Assembly: GCA_946403965.1 (NCBI GenBank) | Contig: CAMJBT010000032.1 | Location: 1-34,465, forward strand | Origin: an uncultured Pseudobutyrivibrio sp. | GTDB taxonomy: Bacteria > Bacillota > Clostridia > Lachnospirales > Lachnospiraceae | Length of the DNA: 34,465 bases | Direction: 5' to 3' | In this document: positions 1-31,670 of the stretch, piece after piece | Position numbering within the stretch: the stretch's first letter is position 1 | How the letters are laid out: every line of letters begins with the position of its first letter | The notes under the pieces: model-generated | Databases searched by the model: none | Told to the model about the DNA's origin: nothing | What the model saw: only the letters and a program-made list of their open reading frames with translations | Translations under genes and position numbers: made by a program

Positions 1-390
1 AGAAAATATGATGATATGCAGGAGCGCATGAATAAGCTGTATGAGGAAATTGGTGTAATAGAAGATGAGATTGATACTATCTCCATGAGAATCGATAACA
101 TCAACAAAAAGCAGCTTTCTAAAGACTCCATCTATCGCATACTTAAGAGCTTTGATAAAATATACAGTGAATTTACAGATTCAGAAAAGAAGCGTTTTAT
201 AAATTCTTTTGTGGAGCGTGTTGAAATCTTTGAAGAGGAACAGGAGGATGGTCGCTTCTTGAAGAGTATCAAATTTCGGTTCCCAGTATATTATAATGGG
301 GCTGAGACGCAGGAAGTGAATCTTTCTGATTCGAGTTGGGACTATCAAAGGAGCCTCGAAACCATCGCGGAACTGACTAAGATTAGTTAG
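1..390 (+). CDS. C-terminal part of a large serine recombinase (partial, 5' end outside window)
   Basis: The open frame runs in from the window edge and ends at TAG 388-390. The visible part is a charged, coiled-coil-like stretch followed by a segment containing FDKIYSEFTDSEKKRF and FLKSIKFRFPVY. The same architecture and order (coiled coil, FDKI..., E(E/R)Q..G..(L/I)KSIKF, then a short tail with an LETI/LETV motif) recurs at the end of the recombinase at 8929-10601, so this is the tail of a TnpX/Tn4451-type large serine recombinase. The catalytic and zinc-ribbon domains are not in view. In such elements the recombinase gene usually sits at one end of the integrated DNA, so an element boundary may lie just downstream. 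The family assignment is by similarity of motifs only. Confidence 0.8.
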   Translation, partial: RKYDDMQERMNKLYEEIGVIEDEIDTISMRIDNINKKQLSKDSIYRILKSFDKIYSEFTDSEKKRFINSFVERVEIFEEEQEDGRFLKSIKFRFPVYYNGAETQEVNLSDSSWDYQRSLETIAELTKIS

Positions 391-569: not shown

Positions 570-728
570 TTATTTATTCTCAGCTTCATATTTCCTGATT
601 GCTTGTCGAACGAGGTAGAGAACTTCTCCGTTAATCGATCTACCTTCATACTCGGCAAGCTCTTTTAGTTTGTCGTGAGTTTCACTATCTATTCGTAATC
701 CTAAGTGTTTATCTTTTTCTTTGTTCAT
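570..728 (-). CDS. Small ribbon-helix-helix (Arc/CopG-like) DNA-binding protein
   Basis: A 52-residue protein starting MNKEKDKHLGLRI. The start at 728 is chosen because GAGGGA lies nine bases upstream on the minus strand; a longer frame to 773 has no such site. The pattern is that of an Arc-type RHH: a short beta strand (HLGLRID), helix (ETHDKLKELAEYEG), a turn with the RSINGE motif, then helix (VLYLVRQAIRKYE). RHH dimers bind repeated short operators, and the 147-bp gap to the divergent recombinase holds three AAGTACAT boxes. It is therefore probably an autorepressor that also controls the recombinase. That role is inferred from position; the fold call is from sequence pattern. Confidence 0.75.
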   Translation of the reverse strand: MNKEKDKHLGLRIDSETHDKLKELAEYEGRSINGEVLYLVRQAIRKYEAENK

Positions 729-752
729 AAATAAATCCCTCAATAATATTTT

Positions 753-819
753 ATAAGTACATTTTAAGTTCACAAATTGCTGATATGATTAAAATGTACT
801 TATTTTAAGTACATAAAAT
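753..819. promoter_or_regulatory. Operator cluster: three AAGTACAT boxes in the RHH/recombinase divergent gap
   Basis: A perfect 15-bp inverted repeat is seen: ATAAGTACATTTTAA at 753-767 and its reverse complement at 789-803. A third AAGTACAT copy lies at 807-814 (the others are at 755-762 and, inverted, 794-801). The cluster sits between the start of the RHH gene (728) and the serine recombinase (876). It fits a multi-box operator for the RHH protein. Binding sites for the recombinase itself are an alternative, since serine resolvases also use inverted sites. Confidence 0.6.
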
Positions 820-875
820 ATATGTTTCTTATTGCCTGCTTTAAAGTTTGAAAAAGCGATAAAGGAGGCGATTAC

Positions 876-1472
876 ATGGCTGAATATGGATACATAAGGA
901 TTTCTAGTAAAGATCAAAACCCAGATAGGCAATTTGATGCGATGGAGAGTAGAGGGATTATCACACGAAATATATATGTTGATAAGCAATCTGGGAAGGA
1001 CTTTGATAGGCCAGAATATCAAAAGATGCTTAAGAAGTTGAGAAGGGATGATTTGCTGGTCGTAAAAAGTATTGATAGGCTAGGTAGAAATTATGACGAA
1101 ATTCTTGAACAATGGCGAGTAATAACAAAAGAAAAAGAAGCAAATATAGAAATCTTAGATATGCCATTACTTAACACAGCATCAGAGCAAGATGGCCTTA
1201 CTGGAAAATTAATTGTAGATTTGGTGCTACAATTACTAGCCTACGTTGCAGAGACTGAGCGAGATTTTATTAAGCGAAGGCAAAGTGAAGGTATAGCAGC
1301 TGCTAAGATACGTGGAGTGAGGTTTGGCAGGCCCAAGTCAGATGTATCAGAAAATTTTTTTAGTGCATGTACAGCATGGAAAAATGGAGATATGACAAGC
1401 AGAAAAGCTGCCGAAATTGCTGGAATGTCTCATACAACTTTTTACAGACGTTGTAAGGAATATCAAATGTGA
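876..1472 (+). CDS. Serine recombinase of the resolvase/invertase family
   Basis: A complete 198-residue enzyme, the usual length for Tn3-resolvase/Hin-type recombinases. Catalytic residues fall at the classical positions: R8 and S10 in the YIRISS motif, and D67-R68...R71 in SIDRLGR. A long E helix (AETERDFIKRRQSEG) leads to the arm, and the last 45 residues hold a C-terminal helix-turn-helix (SRKAAEIAGMSHTTFYRRC). Start choice is clear: AAAGGAGG lies upstream of ATG 876. It diverges from the RHH gene. Two 26-bp inverted sites of Hin-like geometry lie immediately downstream (1490-1515, 1573-1598), so a local DNA invertase is the favoured role. Resolution or transposition-related activity cannot be excluded. 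Confidence 0.9.
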   Translation: MAEYGYIRISSKDQNPDRQFDAMESRGIITRNIYVDKQSGKDFDRPEYQKMLKKLRRDDLLVVKSIDRLGRNYDEILEQWRVITKEKEANIEILDMPLLNTASEQDGLTGKLIVDLVLQLLAYVAETERDFIKRRQSEGIAAAKIRGVRFGRPKSDVSENFFSACTAWKNGDMTSRKAAEIAGMSHTTFYRRCKEYQM

Positions 1473-1489
1473 ATTATTACTGAACTCTT

Positions 1490-1515
1490 GTTTCGTGAGG
1501 TAGACAATAAGAAAC
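1490..1515 (+). repeat. Candidate recombination site A (26 bp, GTTTC...GAAAC)
   Basis: Ends are GTTTC (1490-1494) and GAAAC (1511-1515), with the asymmetric core GTAGAC at 1500-1505. The central dinucleotide is AG. Two 12-bp half-sites around a 2-bp centre match the geometry of Hin/Gin sites. It pairs with site B in inverted orientation. Confidence 0.45.
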
Positions 1516-1524
1516 AATTTAAAA

Positions 1525-1555
1525 TAGACAGATATTAGACCTAATTGTCTATATA
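1525..1555 (+). promoter_or_regulatory. Possible promoter inside the putative invertible spacer
   Basis: TAGACA (1525-1530) resembles a -35 box and is followed after 17-19 bases by TCTATA/TATATA, a weak -10. The segment also contains TAGACA...TGTCTA inverted repeats, so a similar motif would face the same way after inversion, and orientation dependence is uncertain. Confidence 0.25.
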
Positions 1556-1572
1556 TTCATTCTATAACCTAT

Positions 1573-1598
1573 GTTTCAAAAAGTCTACATTGTGAAAC
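1573..1598 (-). repeat. Candidate recombination site B (inverted copy of site A)
   Basis: Also exactly 26 bp, with GTTTC at 1573-1577 and GAAAC at 1594-1598. On the minus strand it shares GTAGAC at the same offset as site A and matches it at 18 of 26 positions, including the AG centre. Sites A and B flank 57 bp (1516-1572) and lie between the recombinase stop and the TM2 gene ribosome binding site. Confidence 0.45.
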
Positions 1599-1626: not shown

Positions 1627-1962
1627 ATGGATAAGCAGAAAGTAGACTTGTATTTAACAACTAATGCAAAGTATTTTGAACCTCAATCAATTCCAATCAT
1701 AAGACAAAAATTGGAAAATGCTAGTGATGATTCCTTTTTGGTTGTGCAGTCGACTGAGTTAAAAGATCCAACAACTTTATTATTGGTTTCAATTTTCTTA
1801 GGAACATTGGGTGTTGATCGTTTTATGCTTGGTGAAACAGGAATGGGAATACTAAAACTATTAACAGCAGGTTGTTGTGGTGTGTTAACAATAATTGATT
1901 GGTTTACAATTAGTAAAAAGACTAAGCAGAAGAATTTTGCAACACTTTCATTGACCATTTAG
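1627..1962 (+). CDS. TM2 domain membrane protein
   Basis: 111 residues. The N-terminal 45 are soluble. Residues about 46-105 form a TM2 domain: a first hydrophobic helix (TLLLVSIFLGTLGVDRFMLG, with the hallmark DRF.LG), then GMGILKLLTAGCCGVLTIIDWF (second helix ending in IDW). TM2 proteins are small two-helix membrane proteins of mostly unknown function. A strong site (GGAAAGGAG) precedes ATG 1627. The DUF2752 gene begins two bases after the stop, so the two are co-transcribed. The upstream 57-bp spacer between inverted sites would carry or influence its promoter. Confidence 0.85.
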   Translation: MDKQKVDLYLTTNAKYFEPQSIPIIRQKLENASDDSFLVVQSTELKDPTTLLLVSIFLGTLGVDRFMLGETGMGILKLLTAGCCGVLTIIDWFTISKKTKQKNFATLSLTI

Positions 1963-1964
1963 CG

Positions 1965-2327
1965 ATGTGGAATAAAAAAAATATTATAGAAATTGTATTA
2001 ATGGGGGGATTATCGACATTATTGTTTGTATTGAATGTTCGATTATGCCCCTTTTTCTTTTTGTTTAAGATACCATGTCCTGGATGTGGATTTACTAGAG
2101 CATTTATAGCTCTATTGAGATTAAATTTTCTTGAGAGTTTTCAATATAATTTGATGTGCATTCCGATATGTATATTCTTAGCAACATATATTTTTCTATT
2201 AATACTGAAAAAAGAGCAATATGTACATAATTTGACTAAAAAATATCGTAAACAGATTATTATAATTTGTTTTGTTGTAATGCTTGTTTCATGGATAAAG
2301 AATATAAATAATCCTTTACTTTATTAG
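1965..2327 (+). CDS. DUF2752 family membrane protein
   Basis: 120 residues with three hydrophobic segments (about 9-27, 60-80 and 95-112). The diagnostic motif CPGCGFTRAFIALLRLNF follows the first segment; DUF2752 proteins carry CP.CG.TRA at this place. The function is unknown; the cysteine pair may bind metal or be redox active, which is speculation. It follows the TM2 gene at a two-base gap. TM2 and DUF2752 genes are often neighbours in Firmicutes, which suggests a shared membrane role. Confidence 0.85.
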   Translation: MWNKKNIIEIVLMGGLSTLLFVLNVRLCPFFFLFKIPCPGCGFTRAFIALLRLNFLESFQYNLMCIPICIFLATYIFLLILKKEQYVHNLTKKYRKQIIIICFVVMLVSWIKNINNPLLY

Positions 2328-2436: not shown

Positions 2437-3729
2437 ATGAAAATTCTAAGATTATTATTTATACTTACCGTGATGTTGACAGCAGTATTATTTGTAGGAT
2501 GTAAATCTACCCCTAGTGAAAAGGATATAAAAAAAGATTTATTGAATTATGAAGATGAGGATTTCTTCGAAATTAGTAAGGTGACAATAGATAGAGAACT
2601 GACTGAAGAAAAGAAGGATGTTATAGATTGTACAGTAGAAACATCAAATGAATTTGCTGATATGATATTTTATCTCACTATTGATTACACAAAGTATGAT
2701 ACAGGAGGATGGCAAATCGATAGTATCGTAGATAGAAAGGACTATGCCGTTACAATCACAGATAAACCTAGTAATGATTCGGTTGAAACAGAAGTTGCTA
2801 AAATTATGCAGGGGGAAGGCATATCGGATTATTCTGTCATAGAAACAAGTTTTGATAAGGCTACGGGAGATGGTGCAGTAGAGGTTCAAGCCTTTGTTGA
2901 AGATGATACTTATATAAAGTATTACAAAGATATGATTTTTAATTGTTGCTTTGATAGAGGATATTGGAATATATCCTATGAAAATACGGGGGATGATGTG
3001 AAATATGCTCTCATTAAAGATACTATTGTAGGAAAGACATTTAGTGGTGATGATGGAGATGATTATGATCCTTCATATGCACAATTAACATTTACCAAAG
3101 TTGAAGGCAACACAGTCTATTTTTCTTATATATTAAAATATATAAAGCGTGAAGTAGAATGGGGAACAGGAAAAGAAACTCTAACATTATATGAAGATGA
3201 TGCAGGAGATGCTGTTGTTGCTACTGAATTTGAGAATCCAACTTTGACTGGACCTCATTATTATGGTTCTTTTGAGGCAGACTATTGGACAGATCCTTAT
3301 CTTATTATTTCAAATGAGAAAATTCATTTAAGGGAAGGTAGTACTTGGATTGAATTAAATGAAGGTGAGTTAGATAGTAAAATTAAGAATGTAACTGGTT
3401 CTTCTTCAACCAATAGTTTCGATGAAGGTGTAACCGAATCTAATAGTTCTTACGACGGTTATATTATTCCGGAAAGTAATGTGCGCATAATTACCGAAGA
3501 TGATTTATTAGATCTAACATCTCAGGAATTAACATACGCAAGAAATGAGATATACGCTCGCCACGGATATGTGTTTAAATCTTCAGAATTGAATAATTAT
3601 TTTTTATCGACATCCTGGTATGTAACTGATGAATTGTATGATGGTTCATTAAGTGATATAGAAAGGACGAATGCAAACTTTATCTCTGAGTATCAGAAGA
3701 GTAACGGCTTAGAATATGCACCACAGTAG
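2437..3729 (+). CDS. YARHG-domain lipoprotein
   Basis: 430 residues. A type II signal peptide ends in the lipobox FVGC, with the modified Cys at 22. The middle is an acidic, Asp/Glu-rich region without a fold I recognise. Residues about 367-420 form a YARHG domain, a small extracellular domain named for this motif: YARNEIYARHGYVFKS, then NNYFLSTSWY. GGAGG precedes ATG 2437. It is followed 12 bases later by an amidase lipoprotein, so the pair looks like a cell-envelope operon. YARHG domains occur in peptidase- and cell-wall-associated proteins; the binding target is not known. Confidence 0.85.
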   Translation: MKILRLLFILTVMLTAVLFVGCKSTPSEKDIKKDLLNYEDEDFFEISKVTIDRELTEEKKDVIDCTVETSNEFADMIFYLTIDYTKYDTGGWQIDSIVDRKDYAVTITDKPSNDSVETEVAKIMQGEGISDYSVIETSFDKATGDGAVEVQAFVEDDTYIKYYKDMIFNCCFDRGYWNISYENTGDDVKYALIKDTIVGKTFSGDDGDDYDPSYAQLTFTKVEGNTVYFSYILKYIKREVEWGTGKETLTLYEDDAGDAVVATEFENPTLTGPHYYGSFEADYWTDPYLIISNEKIHLREGSTWIELNEGELDSKIKNVTGSSSTNSFDEGVTESNSSYDGYIIPESNVRIITEDDLLDLTSQELTYARNEIYARHGYVFKSSELNNYFLSTSWYVTDELYDGSLSDIERTNANFISEYQKSNGLEYAPQ

Positions 3730-3741
3730 GAGTGTAAATAA

Positions 3742-4605
3742 ATGAAACTAAAAAGATTGTTTTTCTCTGTTTGTGCAATGTGTTTTCTTTTGATTTCATG
3801 TTCATCTGTAAAAACCAAAAGTTCTGAGAAGGTAATGGAGGAAAAAATCGCATCGGATACAAGCCAGAGGATAGAATTAGAGGATGTAAGTGATTACATA
3901 CAATCACAAATAATAGAGAATGAAGTAATAGAAGATGATATTGCTGAAACTGAACAGTTTGATAAAAAAATAGTTGTTATTGATGCCGGACATCAAATGC
4001 ATGCAAATACTGAATTAGAACCAATTGGACCCGGTTCTAATGATACGAAACCTAAGGTATCTGCAGGAACAAAAGGTTATCAATCTGGAATACCTGAGTA
4101 TGAGATTAATTTGATACTATCAAATTATCTGCAGGCAGAATTAATTGAACGAGGCTACACTGTAATAATGTGTAGGACGGAAAATGATGTTAATATCAGC
4201 AATATTGAAAGGGCTCAGATAGCTAATGATGCGGATGCAGATGTATTTGTGCGTATTCATTGTAATGGCTCCAACAATCATTCATTAAGCGGTGCTATGA
4301 CAATTTGTCAAACAGCGAATAACCCGTATAATTCCTATATTTATTCACAAAGTAAATTATTATCTGAGTGTATACTAGATGCACTAGTGGAATATACAGG
4401 ATGTAACAAGGAATACGTATGGGAGACGGATTCTATGAGTGGAATTAACTGGAGCAATGTACCAGTTACTATAGTTGAGGTAGGTTACATGACAAATGAG
4501 ATTGAAGAAGAACTATTGTTATCTGAAGATTACCAAGAAAAGATAGTTCAGGGTATAGCAAATGGCATAGATGCGTATTTTTCGCGGTGCTCAAACAACC
4601 CATAG
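3742..4605 (+). CDS. N-acetylmuramoyl-L-alanine amidase (Amidase_3), lipoprotein
   Basis: 287 residues with a lipobox (LLISC, Cys20), then an acidic linker to about residue 75. The rest is an Amidase_3 domain that cleaves the bond between MurNAc and L-Ala in peptidoglycan. Zinc ligands can be placed at H84 (VVIDAGH), E119 (IPEYEINL) and H173 (VRIHCNG), with the catalytic E246 in VEVGYMTN. All key residues are present, so it should be active. As a lipoprotein it would act from the outer face of the membrane. It sits directly downstream of the YARHG lipoprotein gene. Confidence 0.9.
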   Translation: MKLKRLFFSVCAMCFLLISCSSVKTKSSEKVMEEKIASDTSQRIELEDVSDYIQSQIIENEVIEDDIAETEQFDKKIVVIDAGHQMHANTELEPIGPGSNDTKPKVSAGTKGYQSGIPEYEINLILSNYLQAELIERGYTVIMCRTENDVNISNIERAQIANDADADVFVRIHCNGSNNHSLSGAMTICQTANNPYNSYIYSQSKLLSECILDALVEYTGCNKEYVWETDSMSGINWSNVPVTIVEVGYMTNEIEEELLLSEDYQEKIVQGIANGIDAYFSRCSNNP

Positions 4606-5654: not shown

Positions 5655-6247
5655 TTAGTTTTCTTTATTATTATCTCTACGCTCTTTTAGACGTTTAACC
5701 TTACGGGTGTTCTTCTTCGACTTGAGCATGTCCTTATATTTTTTTGACCTATGCATCAGTTTTTTGAAGACGTTATATTCTTCTGGTGGGACAGTAGAAG
5801 GATTAATTCCACTGGTAGAGCAGAAGGATTTAAAGAAGATTTGGGCAACATCTTCGTCAGGGTCTTCCTCTGTGATTTCTGGTACATAGATATTTCCAAG
5901 AATAAAGTCTTTCAAAGTTGTGTCGGTAGCTGTTTCAGCATCTTTCTTATGAGCTTCTCTAAGGTCGTCCAAGATAGGAGAGAGCTCAGTGTTGATTCGG
6001 TTTATAAAGTAGTTTCTTTCTTCTACATGGTTTGCTTCCAGCAATGCAGCAAAAATATCATCTCTGTCAGGTTTGAGTTTTTAACTATCTTCTCGTGGTG
6101 GGCATTCATTACAGCTTGAATAGCCTGAAAATCCTGTCCAGCAATTCCATCGATATAGATTTCAATATCAGCCAAATCATCCTGTGATAATCCTTTTTCA
6201 ACTCGTAAATCTTTCAATCGTTCCTGTAGTGTTACATGAGTTTTCAA
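5655..6247 (-). pseudogene. XRE-family repressor remnant: internal deletion plus frameshift
   Basis: On the minus strand AAGGGGG lies eight bases before TTG 6247, opening (M)KTHVTLQERLKDLRVEKGLSQ. That is the typical first helix of an element-borne XRE repressor, but after about 25 residues it jumps to ADIEIYIDGIAGQDFQ, a stretch that in full-length relatives lies far beyond the HTH. The HTH core is therefore missing. Near 6067-6071 one base is lacking; restoring it joins ...NSNL to DRDDIFAALLEANHVEERNYF and the C-terminal 129 residues, which end in a Lys/Arg-rich tail. The relation to full-length relatives is from memory of the family. It is divergent from, and fused to, the truncated VapE gene. 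Confidence 0.55.
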
Positions 6248-7267
6248 TTTATATTCCCCCTTAAGAATCATCAACGGGATTATCTGAATAATTTGTACTG
6301 GGATGGCTCACCAAGAATTCGCTATGCATTGAATCATTTCCTAGGTGCTGAGATTTCTGATTATCATTACGAGGGCTTAAAGCTGTTTTTACTTGGCGCT
6401 ATAAATAGAGTCTTTAAACCAGGTTGCAAGTTCGAATACATGCTTTGTCTTGTTGGTGGACAAGGGGCGGGTAAATCTACCTTTGCTAGATTTCTTGCAT
6501 CAAAAGATATGTGGTTTTCAGATGATTTAAAGAGGCTAGATGATGAAAAGGTTTATGAGCATTTGGTAGGGCATTGGATTTGTGAGATGGCTGAGATGAT
6601 TCCTATTTTAAATACTCGTTTTATTGAGTCCACCAAAGCATTCCTAAGTAAGCAGTTTGACAACTATCGTGTGCCTTATGGAGTAAGAGCCGAGGATAGA
6701 CCAAGGCAGTGTGTGTTTGTAGGAACATCAAATGTAATCAACTTTTTGCCATTAGATAGAAGTGGTAACAGACGTTTCCTTCCTGGTATGTGTGATGCAG
6801 CGAAAGCTGAGGTTCATATCTTAGAGGATGAGAAAGAATCGCGTTATTACATTGAACAAATGTGGGCTGAGGCGATGGTGCTCTATAGGGAAGGAAAAGA
6901 TAAGCTGAAGCTTCCTAAAGAAATAGAAGAGGATTTGGCAGAGTACCAGCGTCCATTTATGCAAGAGGATACATGGACAGGATTGATTCAGGAATGGCTT
7001 GACCATACCAATAATAACTTGGTTTGCGTGCAGCAGATATACAACGAGGCCTTGAATGAATTTGGAAAGCCTAGAAATAGTGTGGCACGTGAGATAGGCC
7101 TGATAATGAATGGAACAATCACCGGATGGAAGCCTTATCCAAATCCGCGAAACATTCCTAAGTATGGAAAACAACGTGGATGGATGCGAGTGGAAACAAA
7201 CTCTGGAAACAAAGAGGAAACTTTTATTCCAGTGGATGGCACTCAGATGGAAATACCTTTTGATTAG
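6236..7267 (+). CDS. VapE (virulence-associated E) family ATPase, 5'-truncated
   Basis: The recognisable protein begins at about 6263 (NHQRDYLNNLYWDGSPRI), which in VapE proteins is the entry to the helicase-like domain. The upstream primase-like half is absent. Walker A is GGQGAGKS, a Walker-B-like stretch is HWICEMAEM, and the SGNRRF motif follows, all as in VapE. The C-terminal 110 residues resemble the usual accessory wing. VapE proteins belong to phages, satellites and integrative elements and act in replication of the element. ATG 6236 has no ribosome binding site and lies over the repressor's own start, so the gene was probably joined to the repressor's upstream region by a deletion. 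The ATPase core is intact but expression is doubtful. Confidence 0.75.
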   Translation: MSFQFIFPLKNHQRDYLNNLYWDGSPRIRYALNHFLGAEISDYHYEGLKLFLLGAINRVFKPGCKFEYMLCLVGGQGAGKSTFARFLASKDMWFSDDLKRLDDEKVYEHLVGHWICEMAEMIPILNTRFIESTKAFLSKQFDNYRVPYGVRAEDRPRQCVFVGTSNVINFLPLDRSGNRRFLPGMCDAAKAEVHILEDEKESRYYIEQMWAEAMVLYREGKDKLKLPKEIEEDLAEYQRPFMQEDTWTGLIQEWLDHTNNNLVCVQQIYNEALNEFGKPRNSVAREIGLIMNGTITGWKPYPNPRNIPKYGKQRGWMRVETNSGNKEETFIPVDGTQMEIPFD

Positions 7268-8928: not shown

Positions 8929-10601
8929 ATGACCAAGGAGAAGACAAAAGTTTATATTTACACTCGTGTTTCTACCACAATGCAGGTTGATGGTTATTCG
9001 TTAGAAGCACAGAAGACTAGAATGAGAGGCTACTGTGCTTTTAATGAATATGAGATGGCTGATGAATATGAGGATGCTGGAAAGTCAGGCAAGTCCACTG
9101 TGGACCGCATGGCTTTTAATCAAATGATAGAAGATATTAAAGCTGGTAAGGATGATGTTAGATTTGTCCTTGTATTTAAGCTTTCTCGATTTGGTAGAAA
9201 TGCTGCTGATGTTCTTTCTACACTCCAAGTAATGCAAGACTTTGGTGTAGATCTAATCTGTGTTGAAGATGGAATTGATTCATCAAAGGATGCAGGTAAG
9301 CTTATGATTTCCGTTCTGTCAGCTGTAGCTGAAATTGAACGTGAGATTATTCGTGCTCAAACTACTGAAGGTTGTGTGCATAAAGCCAGAGAAGGAAAAT
9401 GGAATGGAGGTATGTCGCCTTATGGATATAAACTGATAGATGGTCAGTTAATATTGAATGAGGAAGAGGCAACTGTAATTAGAACTATTTTTGATTTGTA
9501 CGTGAATACAACTGCGGGCCCCTCTGGTGTAGCAAAGTATCTTGCAAATCATGGCGTTAAGAAGACTGCTAGACGAGCAAATGATAATGATTATTTTAGT
9601 GAGCATGTAATACGCAGTATATTAATCAATCCAGTTTATATGGGAAAGATAGCTTTTGGACGCAGGAAAATGGAAAAAATAAAAGGTACTAGAAATGAAT
9701 ATCACGTTGTTAATTCTGATGATTATATCCTAGCTGATGGTATTCATGAGGCTATTATTTCTGAGGAACTATGGGAAGCAGCTCAAGCTAAGATGCTAAG
9801 ACGACATAACAAATATAGACGCTCAAATAAGAGAGAGAATGAAAGAACTCATTTGCTAACTGGAATTGTTAAATGCCCTATATGCGGAACTGGTTTATAT
9901 GCCAACAAGGCAACAAAACGTAAAGCAGATGGAACTTTCTATAAGGATTTTTATTATTATGCCTGCAAGCATAGAAAAAAGATAGAGGCCATGTATGCTC
10001 ATACAGAAAGCAGATAAATGAGGAACTACTAGATGAAGCTGTCATTGAGATATTGAAAAGTGCGACTAGAGACAGAAAATTATCATCATCAATAAAGAAG
10101 AGAATAAATGCAGATGTTGATACTACAGCCATTGATAAGGAAATAAAAACTTATAAGACTCAGATGCGAAAACTCTATGGATGCAAGGATGTCATCAATA
10201 ATGACATAGAGGCTCTTGATGTTGAGGATAAGCATTATCTCAGAAGAAAAAGAGATTTGGAAGAAGGTTTATACAAAATCTATGATAGAATAGATGAAGT
10301 AGAAAGCTTAATACTTGAAGCCCAGTCAAAATGTCAATCAATTTTGGAAGAGAAGACTTCTGCGGATAATATTTATAAGTTGCTTGTATTCTTTGATAAG
10401 ATTTGTGATTTTATGACAGAGGAAGAACGCAGGATGTTTGTGACACAGCTCATTGATGAGATTAACGTCTATGAGGAACGACAGGCAAACGGACAGTGGA
10501 TAAAGTCAATTAAGTTTAAGGTGCCTATGATATGTAACGAGACAGTTTTTGGTTTGGACAAAAATAATTGTCTTGAGACGGTTGTTCTTCTGTCCCAATA
10601 A
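8929..10601 (+). pseudogene. Large serine recombinase (TnpX/Tn4451 type), -1 frameshift near 9985
   Basis: Frame one (8929-10017) holds the resolvase domain with YIYTRVSTTMQVDGYSLEAQ (catalytic Ser15), SRFGRNAADV and EIEREIIRAQ. The Recombinase domain follows (GMSPYGYKL... and SILINPVYMGKIAFG), then the zinc ribbon (CPICGTGLY...YYYYACKH). The frame then ends in MYAHTESR. The -1 frame carries on GHVCSYRKQINEELLDEAV, the coiled coil and the family C-terminus to 10601. One extra G at GAGGCC (9985-9990) would restore it. The in-frame A_AAA_AAG at 9975-9981 is the classical -1 slippery heptamer and also leads to the right frame. Total length when joined is about 557 residues, normal for the family. 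Confidence 0.85.
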
Positions 10602-31519: not shown

Positions 31520-31611
31520 TCCCGTCTCGATTGAAGTGCTCTTTAATACAAAAAATGAGGTCACCCATTTGGATGACCTCATTATTTGCATTAAAAGAGC
31601 GCGAGACGGGA
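31520..31611. repeat. Long imperfect inverted repeat containing a copy of the tRNA-Gly 3' end
   Basis: Arms are 31520-31563 and 31574-31611. TCCCGTCTCG (31520-31529) is a perfect inverted copy of the tRNA 3' part (CGAGACGGGA, 31602-31611). GCTC-TTTAAT-CAAA-AATGAGGTCA then matches the downstream flank almost without mismatch. The left arm has about six extra bases. The inner part forms the tRNA terminator. Confidence 0.6.
31552..31583 (-). terminator. Terminator of the tRNA-Gly gene
   Basis: AATGAGGTCA (31554-31563) pairs perfectly with TGACCTCATT (31574-31583). On the minus strand a T run follows. Confidence 0.8.
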
Positions 31612-31670
31612 CTCGAACCCGCGACCCCCACCTTGGCAAGGTGGTGCTCCACCAACTGAGCCACTCGCGC
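31598..31670 (-). tRNA. tRNA-Gly (anticodon GCC)
   Basis: 73 bases read on the minus strand. The acceptor stem is GCGCGAG/CTCGCGC with discriminator T. The D arm is GCTC/GAGC, the anticodon stem CCACC/GGTGG has loop TTGCCAA (GCC), and the T arm has TTCGAGT. CCA is not encoded. All arms pair. Confidence 0.97.

What the first reader, a model, noticed from the sequence alone, without database searches (positions are those of the whole stretch)
1490..1598. Putative minute invertible DNA switch next to a serine recombinase
Two 26-bp sites, each bounded by GTTTC and GAAAC, lie immediately after the recombinase stop and before the TM2 gene. On opposite strands they share the asymmetric core GTAGAC at the same offset, match at 18 of 26 positions, and have the same non-palindromic central dinucleotide (AG). 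Hin/Gin-family invertases use 26-bp sites with a 2-bp centre, and the enzyme here has the R8, S10, R68 and R71 pattern. Inversion would flip only 57 bp, which includes promoter-like boxes facing TM2/DUF2752 and perhaps the downstream envelope genes. An invertible segment this short would be unusual. Such short spacing may need DNA bending.
Basis: partly seen in the sequence, partly recalled or inferred. Interest (0 to 1): 0.75.

Follow-up and report, generated by a model that had tools for sequence, protein, structure and literature searches.

The report
Tiny flip-flop promoter beside its recombinase
A gut bacterium carries a recombinase gene next to a very short stretch of DNA that, in related bacteria, has been caught turned end over end; the stretch seems to hold a promoter, so flipping it should switch the neighbouring cell-surface genes on or off.

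Summary
The two 26-bp sites are as described and not chance (0 of 100 shuffles had two matches). A strict set of 32 loci (window plus 31 relatives) has the same pair just downstream of the recombinase, while the next gene varies. In three relatives the intersite DNA is inverted against near relatives, half-sites exchanged at the core: L034 versus L045/L048/L067, L170 versus L169/L175/L182 and, more weakly, L199. Site distances cluster at whole helical turns (about 83, 94, 105, 116, 127 bp; 38 recombinase clusters, Rayleigh p about 6e-10), as synapsis across a tiny loop would require. A predicted promoter has a fixed place: -35 box at the crossover core, mostly TAGACT, 17 bp, TATAAT (25 of 32). 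In the window a weaker version (TAGAAT) points at the recombinase; inversion would turn it toward TM2/DUF2752. The enzyme is closer to Sin resolvase than to DNA invertases, and no Hin-type enhancer fits between the sites. Inversion in the window's own strain was not observed.

The parts
876..1472 (+). small serine recombinase, 198 aa, N-terminal catalytic domain and probable C-terminal HTH
   Evidence: Pfam Resolvase E=3.8e-27; HTH_50 E=8.1e-5 but below its curated cut-off; R8, S10, R68, R71; nearest solved relative 2r0q, 105.8 bits, which is Sin
1490..1515 (+). recombination site A, core GTAGAC
   Evidence: conserved in relatives
1573..1598 (-). recombination site B, inverted relative to A, core GTCTAC on the + strand
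   Evidence: more conserved than A across relatives
1516..1572 (.). 57-bp spacer, 79% A+T, of the proposed invertible segment (core to core, about 83 bp)
   Evidence: corresponding segments are inverted in L170, L199 and L034 relative to their near relatives
1559..1587 (-). predicted promoter TAGACT-17-TAGAAT; the -35 box overlaps the core of site B; now faces the recombinase, would face TM2 after inversion
   Evidence: same place in relatives, mostly with TATAAT
824..839 (-). third site-like element C (GTTTCTTATTGCCTGC), upstream of the recombinase start; resembles the right half of site A
   Evidence: function inferred
570..773 (-). divergent Arc-like ribbon-helix-helix protein, possible regulator of the recombinase
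   Evidence: Pfam Arc E=1.3e-7; palindrome TGTACTTATTTTAAGTACA at 795-813 between the two genes; link inferred
1627..1962 (+). TM2-domain protein, first proposed target
   Evidence: Pfam TM2 E=4.7e-17
1965..2327 (+). DUF2752 protein, proposed target
   Evidence: Pfam E=1.2e-15
2437..3729 (+). YARHG-domain protein, lipoprotein-like by eye, possible further target
   Evidence: Pfam E=3.1e-22
3742..4605 (+). N-acetylmuramoyl-L-alanine amidase, possible further target
   Evidence: Pfam Amidase_3 E=3.4e-39

Best explanation
This is a self-contained phase-variation switch. The recombinase binds sites A and B as dimers. Because the sites are about a whole number of helical turns apart, the dimers can meet across a DNA loop of about 83 bp, cut at the central AG/CT and rejoin the segment inverted. 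The segment carries a promoter whose -35 box is made by the crossover core itself, so it is rebuilt at either site. In the assembled (OFF) state it reads toward the 3' end of the recombinase gene; inverted (ON) it reads into TM2-DUF2752 and perhaps the envelope genes behind them. Shown: the sites, their co-occurrence with the recombinase, helical phasing, promoter placement as a sequence pattern, and inverted forms in three relatives. Inferred: that this recombinase does the cutting, that the promoter works, and that the window's own copy switches.
For: Inverted forms: L034 carries the segment of L045/L048/L067 inverted (local scores 80/74/72 inverted against 10.5-15.5 same direction), with similar flanks on both sides and recombinases 91-92% identical. 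L170 is inverted relative to L169/L175/L182 (65.5-68 against 10.5-12.5; recombinases 90-93%). L199 is inverted relative to 13 of the 15 loci listed with it, for example L182 (35.5 against 7), and in the same direction as L170 (36 against 7.5). Co-occurrence: 52 of 100 downstream regions hold an inverted pair of at least 16/26, against 13 of 413 regions elsewhere in the loci and 14 of 485 shuffles; at 18/26, 38 of 100 against 1 of 413. Phasing: 38 clusters at 80% aa, R=0.748 at 10.5 bp, p about 6e-10, 0 of 3000 jittered sets as good over a scan of periods; the strict 32 give R=0.85; distinct distances alone (n=23) give p about 8e-4; control distances are unphased (n=13, p=0.57). Promoter: perfect TATAAT at the canonical place in 26 of 32 loci against 35 of 1600 shuffled segments; in the other 25 loci the best promoter of one strand starts 24-27 bases from the core with a 17-bp spacer in 15, against 16 of 500 shuffles.
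Against: No inverted form was seen for the window's species, and no reads were available. The window's -10 (TAGAAT) is weaker than the TATAAT of relatives. 28 of 32 strict-set loci stand in one orientation (2 ON, 2 undecided), so switching may be rare or regulated. L182 (87 bp) and L038 (121 bp) lie off the helical phase. L178 aligns with L199 in the same direction (26 against 17) although its promoter is called OFF. Downstream of B the flank of L170 differs from its relatives, so only the left side is collinear there. L181 and L186 are relatives at E<=1e-72 without the strict pair, and 48 of 100 downstream regions fall below 16/26. Control regions were probably mostly coding, and loci are not fully independent.
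Confidence: 0.83

Rival explanations
1. A and B are operators only: recombinase dimers bound at both sites form a small repression loop, and strand exchange does not normally occur.
For: Helical phasing is also the mark of looped repressors (recalled); a predicted promoter lies between the sites; most assemblies show one orientation.
Against: Three relatives have the segment inverted with half-sites exchanged at the core. In the strict set the pair was required to have centres AG and CT, so that agreement is by selection and is no separate evidence.
Confidence: 0.08
2. A and B are a resolvase res site for resolving dimers of a mobile element, Sin/Tn3-like.
For: The closest solved relative is Sin resolvase; the recombinase is accessory in its genus (2 of 29 genomes at E<=1e-65, own included); an open frame at 1-390 looks by eye like the end of a large recombinase (not tested).
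Against: A and B are inverted relative to each other and downstream of the gene; inversion is documented in relatives; the scanned next genes are mostly not replication or transfer genes.
Confidence: 0.05
3. The inverted repeats act as RNA, as a hairpin, attenuator or terminator.
For: The two 27-nt arms are 70% complementary.
Against: Each arm is itself a near-palindromic 26-mer; the halves that would close the hairpin differ (commonest A inner half ACAATAAGAAAC, B inner half ACTTTTTGAAAC); the scan listed no terminator there; phasing and inversion are not explained. No RNA fold was run.
Confidence: 0.02

Closest known systems
Hin/Gin/Cin DNA invertases (Salmonella flagellar switch and phage tail switches)
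   Same: Small serine recombinase, 26-bp dimer sites with a 2-bp centre, inversion of a promoter segment (recalled for Hin; mechanism passages seen in PMC4817059 and PMC3798978).
   Different: Wild-type Hin needs a 65-bp Fis-bound enhancer, which does not fit in the 57-bp spacer; chains labelled DNA-invertase (Gin, recalled) score 59-60 bits against 105.8 for Sin; the segment is about 83 bp.
Mpi of Bacteroides fragilis and its invertible promoters
   Same: Serine recombinase inverting segments at polysaccharide loci (PMC5903667 passage).
   Different: Mpi acts on at least thirteen scattered regions; here A and B are the only exact sites found in the genome. NCBIfam Mpi model 47.7 bits against cut-off 272.
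Sin resolvase
   Same: Closest solved relative; short spacer bent by HU or IHF between two dimer sites (PMC2764113 passages).
   Different: Sin resolves; its site II is regulatory only. Here half-sites of both sites are exchanged in relatives, and the sites are inverted relative to each other.
C. difficile RecV switches and other Clostridia invertons
   Same: Invertible segments upstream of operons in Clostridia (abstracts in listing).
   Different: RecV is a tyrosine recombinase (PMC5903667 passage). In the inverton survey PMC11892184 the word serine does not occur in the main text, and its Clostridia group 139 is linked to tyrosine-type recombinases (passages). That RecV acts on several unlinked switches, and that these are longer, is recalled.

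Membership tests
Invertible promoter (inverton) | Inverted repeats flanking an intergenic segment | tested here: met
Invertible promoter (inverton) | Both orientations exist | tested here: inconclusive
   Met in three relatives; not testable for the window's own strain (no reads)
Invertible promoter (inverton) | Segment carries a promoter | tested here: inconclusive
   Predicted only; fixed position across relatives
Hin/Gin DNA invertases | Catalytic serine and arginines | tested here: met
   R8, S10, R68, R71; their role is recalled
Hin/Gin DNA invertases | Fis-bound enhancer in cis | not tested
   A 65-bp enhancer cannot fit between the sites; one elsewhere was not searched for
Hin/Gin DNA invertases | Closest by sequence to invertases rather than resolvases | tested here: not met
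   Sin 105.8 bits, Tn3/gamma-delta 67, DNA-invertase chains 59-60 (solved structures only)
Mpi family (NF009949) | Score above the curated cut-off | tested here: not met
   47.7 against 272
Sin/Tn3 resolvases | One crossover site with accessory dimer sites forming res | tested here: not met
   In relatives half-sites of A and B are exchanged with each other; tested in relatives, not in the window's strain

The most novel reading that the evidence does not exclude
A widespread family of Sin-like serine recombinases in gut Clostridia are enhancer-free invertases, each tied to its own private mini-switch, mostly 83-130 bp from core to core. The sites must lie on the same face of the helix, and in the window's subfamily the crossover core doubles as the -35 box, so the switch is a minimal recombinase-plus-promoter cassette that turns up in front of different operons. 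A third copy of the half-site in front of the recombinase gene (C) may let the enzyme repress itself, or even flip its own gene.
Probability: 0.6. Interest if true: 0.75.

Novelty: new variant of a known kind. Interest (0 to 1): 0.66.

Why it matters
Invertible promoters are well known, but inversion of about 83 bp, below the persistence length of DNA (recalled), with sites spaced in whole helical turns, would be a natural example of a serine recombinase working across a minimal loop. It makes testable how such enzymes are controlled without a Fis enhancer between the sites. Read-based surveys can miss segments this short: in PMC5903667 the authors' method detected no reads for a simulated 100-bp inversion with 150-base reads (passage). 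Phase variation in Lachnospiraceae and Oscillospiraceae may therefore be undercounted. The module is also a compact candidate part for genetic switches.

Tried and rejected
Chance: rejected by shuffles, control regions and the reversed control pattern. In one search, 3 of 397 genomes (the window's own included) matched the strict paired pattern; the reversed control showed 0 in every row. Trans targets: no other exact site in the genome. Phage or plasmid origin: a viral-collection search gave 8 relatives; of the 7 whose flanks were read, L085 has a clear pair with core GTTGAC, and L088 and L090 have pairs in the automatic scan. The plasmid search gave one weak match. 128 phage records hold relatives below 60% identity, whose flanks were not read. 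The 72 viral stretches from a single-site pattern were not followed. A separate inverted-repeat scan gave 27 of 100 regions with at least 14/16, against 2 of 180 shuffles.

Rows dropped or weak: L069, L091 and L017 were left out by hand; L069 met the threshold but was out of register, the other two were below it. Core placement was automatic and looks shifted in L075, L077 and perhaps L063; the strict set does not depend on these. L009 and L011 show identical sites. In one search, 36 of 51 loci scored OFF, 6 ON and 9 undecided; L026, L064, L072 and L090, which scored ON, and L038, which I had noted as possibly ON, rest on promoter scores only and are not counted as inversions. The jitter control used a coarser grid for the null; one search repeats it on one grid. 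One search counts 30 of 32 as OFF or ON; with L168, which matches equally well both ways, 31 of 32 reach 5/6. The 5/6 level is weak evidence, as 172 of 640 shuffles reach it (386 of 1600). L176 is cut by a contig end; L205 could not be placed by the script. One search stopped with a script error and was replaced.

Site C: the own right half of A matches the upstream region better than that of other loci (means 8.9 and 7.05; 0 of 10000 permutations, 26 loci), but relatedness was not corrected, the halves of L170 were swapped back by hand, and several loci lack a clear C. Literature: eight answered searches listed no paper that I recognised as describing this module; only the listings and passages were seen. 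No structure was predicted.

Full report
Observation. Sites A (1490-1515) and B (1573-1598) are present as described: both match GTTTC-N5-GTNNAC-N5-GAAAC exactly, lie in inverted orientation, share centre AG and agree at 18 of 26 positions. Two matches occurred in 0 of 100 shuffles. In the whole genome only these two match the pattern with core GTNKAC exactly. The recombinase at 876-1472 has R8, S10, R68 and R71.

Co-occurrence. A scan of genome contigs found 176 stretches encoding relatives of the recombinase, of which the best 80 were kept. Family, order and genus searches gave further loci. In the 397-genome family sample all 10 genomes with a homologue at E<=1e-75, the window's own and 9 others, have the A/B pair. 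In genus g23, of 15 loci in 14 of 138 genomes, 12 have the pair, L176 is cut by a contig end, and L181 and L186 lack the strict pair. Only 2 of 29 genomes of the window's own genus, itself included, have a recombinase at E<=1e-65. Both, the window and L188, carry the pair in the same orientation in front of different genes: TM2 and an AMP-binding enzyme. Over 100 loci with enough flank, 52 downstream regions have an inverted pair of at least 16/26 around a GTNNAC-like core, against 13 of 413 regions taken elsewhere in the loci and 14 of 485 shuffles. The 413 regions were drawn without regard to genes and are probably mostly coding, so they are an imperfect control.

Direct evidence of inversion. 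I compared the core-to-core segments of 51 loci pairwise. Of 39 pairs with a score of at least 30, 29 align in the same direction and 10 in reverse; these 10 all involve L034 or L170. L034 against L045: the 116-bp segment aligns end to end in reverse, the outer halves of both sites and the flanks on both sides stay alike, and the inner halves are exchanged at GTATAC. The centre of that core, AT, is palindromic, unlike the AG of the window's group. L170 against L175 and L182: the same at GTAGAC, except that beyond B the flanks differ. L199, found later, is inverted relative to 13 of the 15 loci listed with it, runs in the same direction as the inverted L170, and has the exchanged half-sites; it also aligns in the same direction with L178, whose promoter is called OFF. 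L199 is thus the weakest of the three. The inverted pairs whose recombinases were compared are 88-93% identical, so these are not the same strain; but I know of no simpler process that exchanges half-sites at the crossover core.

Helical phasing. Distances between core centres cluster near 83-84, 93-97, 105-106, 114-117 and 126-129 bp, with 87, 121, 136, 158-159, 188, 192 and 214 as single or rare values. With one locus per 80%-identity cluster (n=38), the Rayleigh value at 10.5 bp is R=0.748, p about 6e-10, and the best periods tried are 10.7-10.8; 0 of 3000 jittered sets did as well over the same scan of periods. The strict 32 loci give R=0.85. Distinct distances alone (n=23) give p about 8e-4. 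Control distances are unphased (n=13). The p-values treat loci as independent, which they are not fully. Phasing is what synapsis over so short a loop would demand; a promoter alone gives no reason for it.

Promoter. In the strict set 28 loci are OFF (promoter facing the recombinase), 2 ON (L170, L199) and 2 undecided. A perfect TATAAT stands at the canonical distance from the core in 26 of 32, with a 17-bp spacer in 25, against 35 of 1600 shuffled segments; the -35 there is TAGACT in 18, CAGACT in 6 and TAGACA in 2. In the other 25 loci scanned, the best promoter of one strand starts 24-27 bases from the core with a 17-bp spacer in 15, against 16 of 500 shuffles; several of these use other cores. 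In the window the match is TAGACT-17-TAGAAT on the minus strand, 1587 to 1559, score 9.3, against 7.2 for the best match facing TM2.

Targets. I picked the first downstream gene by a simple ribosome-site or length rule, so some picks may be wrong, and scanned 40 of 47 with Pfam. Six of 40 are AMP-binding enzymes; others are leucine-rich-repeat proteins, PMT_2 enzymes, CpsB/CapC, a Wzz-like match below cut-off, SPFH proteins, an EAL/GGDEF protein, and SIR2, Eco57I and helicase proteins of kinds found in defence systems (recalled). Further ones are a symporter, a phosphatase, an FMN-binding protein and a TetR-like match below cut-off; 9 of 40 have no match. With TM2, DUF2752, YARHG and amidase in the window, many of these are functions often under phase variation (recalled), and the switch is not tied to one operon.

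Mechanism. The closest solved relative is Sin (105.8 bits), ahead of Tn3/gamma-delta (67) and DNA-invertase chains (59-60). Wild-type Hin needs a 65-bp Fis enhancer, and HU helps form its loop of about 100 bp (passages); Sin uses HU or IHF to bend a short spacer (passages). With 57-80 bp between the sites and spacers averaging 73% A+T, I infer direct A-B synapsis, probably helped by HU. This step is untested.

Third element. Upstream of the gene lies C (824-839), which resembles the right half of A; in many relatives C and A change together (0 of 10000 permutations, relatedness not corrected). Autoregulation by the recombinase is the simplest idea; a third crossover site that could flip the gene is possible but unseen. 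A divergent Arc-like gene (570-773) and a palindrome at 795-813 suggest a second layer of control.

Verdict. The switch is real as a conserved module and has moved in relatives; in the window it is very likely but unproven. It is a new variant of a known kind (the serine-recombinase invertible promoter), notable for its size, helical phasing, core-made promoter and lack of room for an enhancer between the sites.

Noticed in passing
window 824-839 and 1500-1515: A site-like element upstream of the recombinase resembles the right half of site A, and the two vary together across relatives; purpose unknown.
   Followed up: partly
window 570-773 and 795-813: Divergent Arc-like ribbon-helix-helix gene with a palindrome between it and the recombinase; similar palindromes stand upstream of several relatives.
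   Followed up: no
window 1-390, 6236-7267 and 8929-10017: An open frame that by eye looks like the end of a large recombinase (not tested), a VapE-like gene and a second large serine recombinase, suggesting mobile elements beside the switch.
   Followed up: no
L085 (IMG/VR contig): A viral-collection contig carries a related recombinase with a mini inverted pair 84 bp apart whose core GTTGAC would make a better -35 box (TTGACT); the next gene has a cohesin domain.
   Followed up: partly
L045, L048, L067: Segments with predicted promoters in both directions, so inversion may swap promoter strength rather than switch fully on and off; the picked next gene in L045 is an Eco57I-like methylase.
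   Followed up: partly
L182: Segment 7 bp shorter than in L175, putting the sites off helical phase (87 bp); a possible naturally locked switch.
   Followed up: no
L186, just after the recombinase gene: No strict site pair, but a single TAGACT-17-TATAAT facing downstream in the printed sequence; it might be a remnant fixed in the ON direction.
   Followed up: no
window 31598-31670: A tRNA gene on the minus strand.
   Followed up: no
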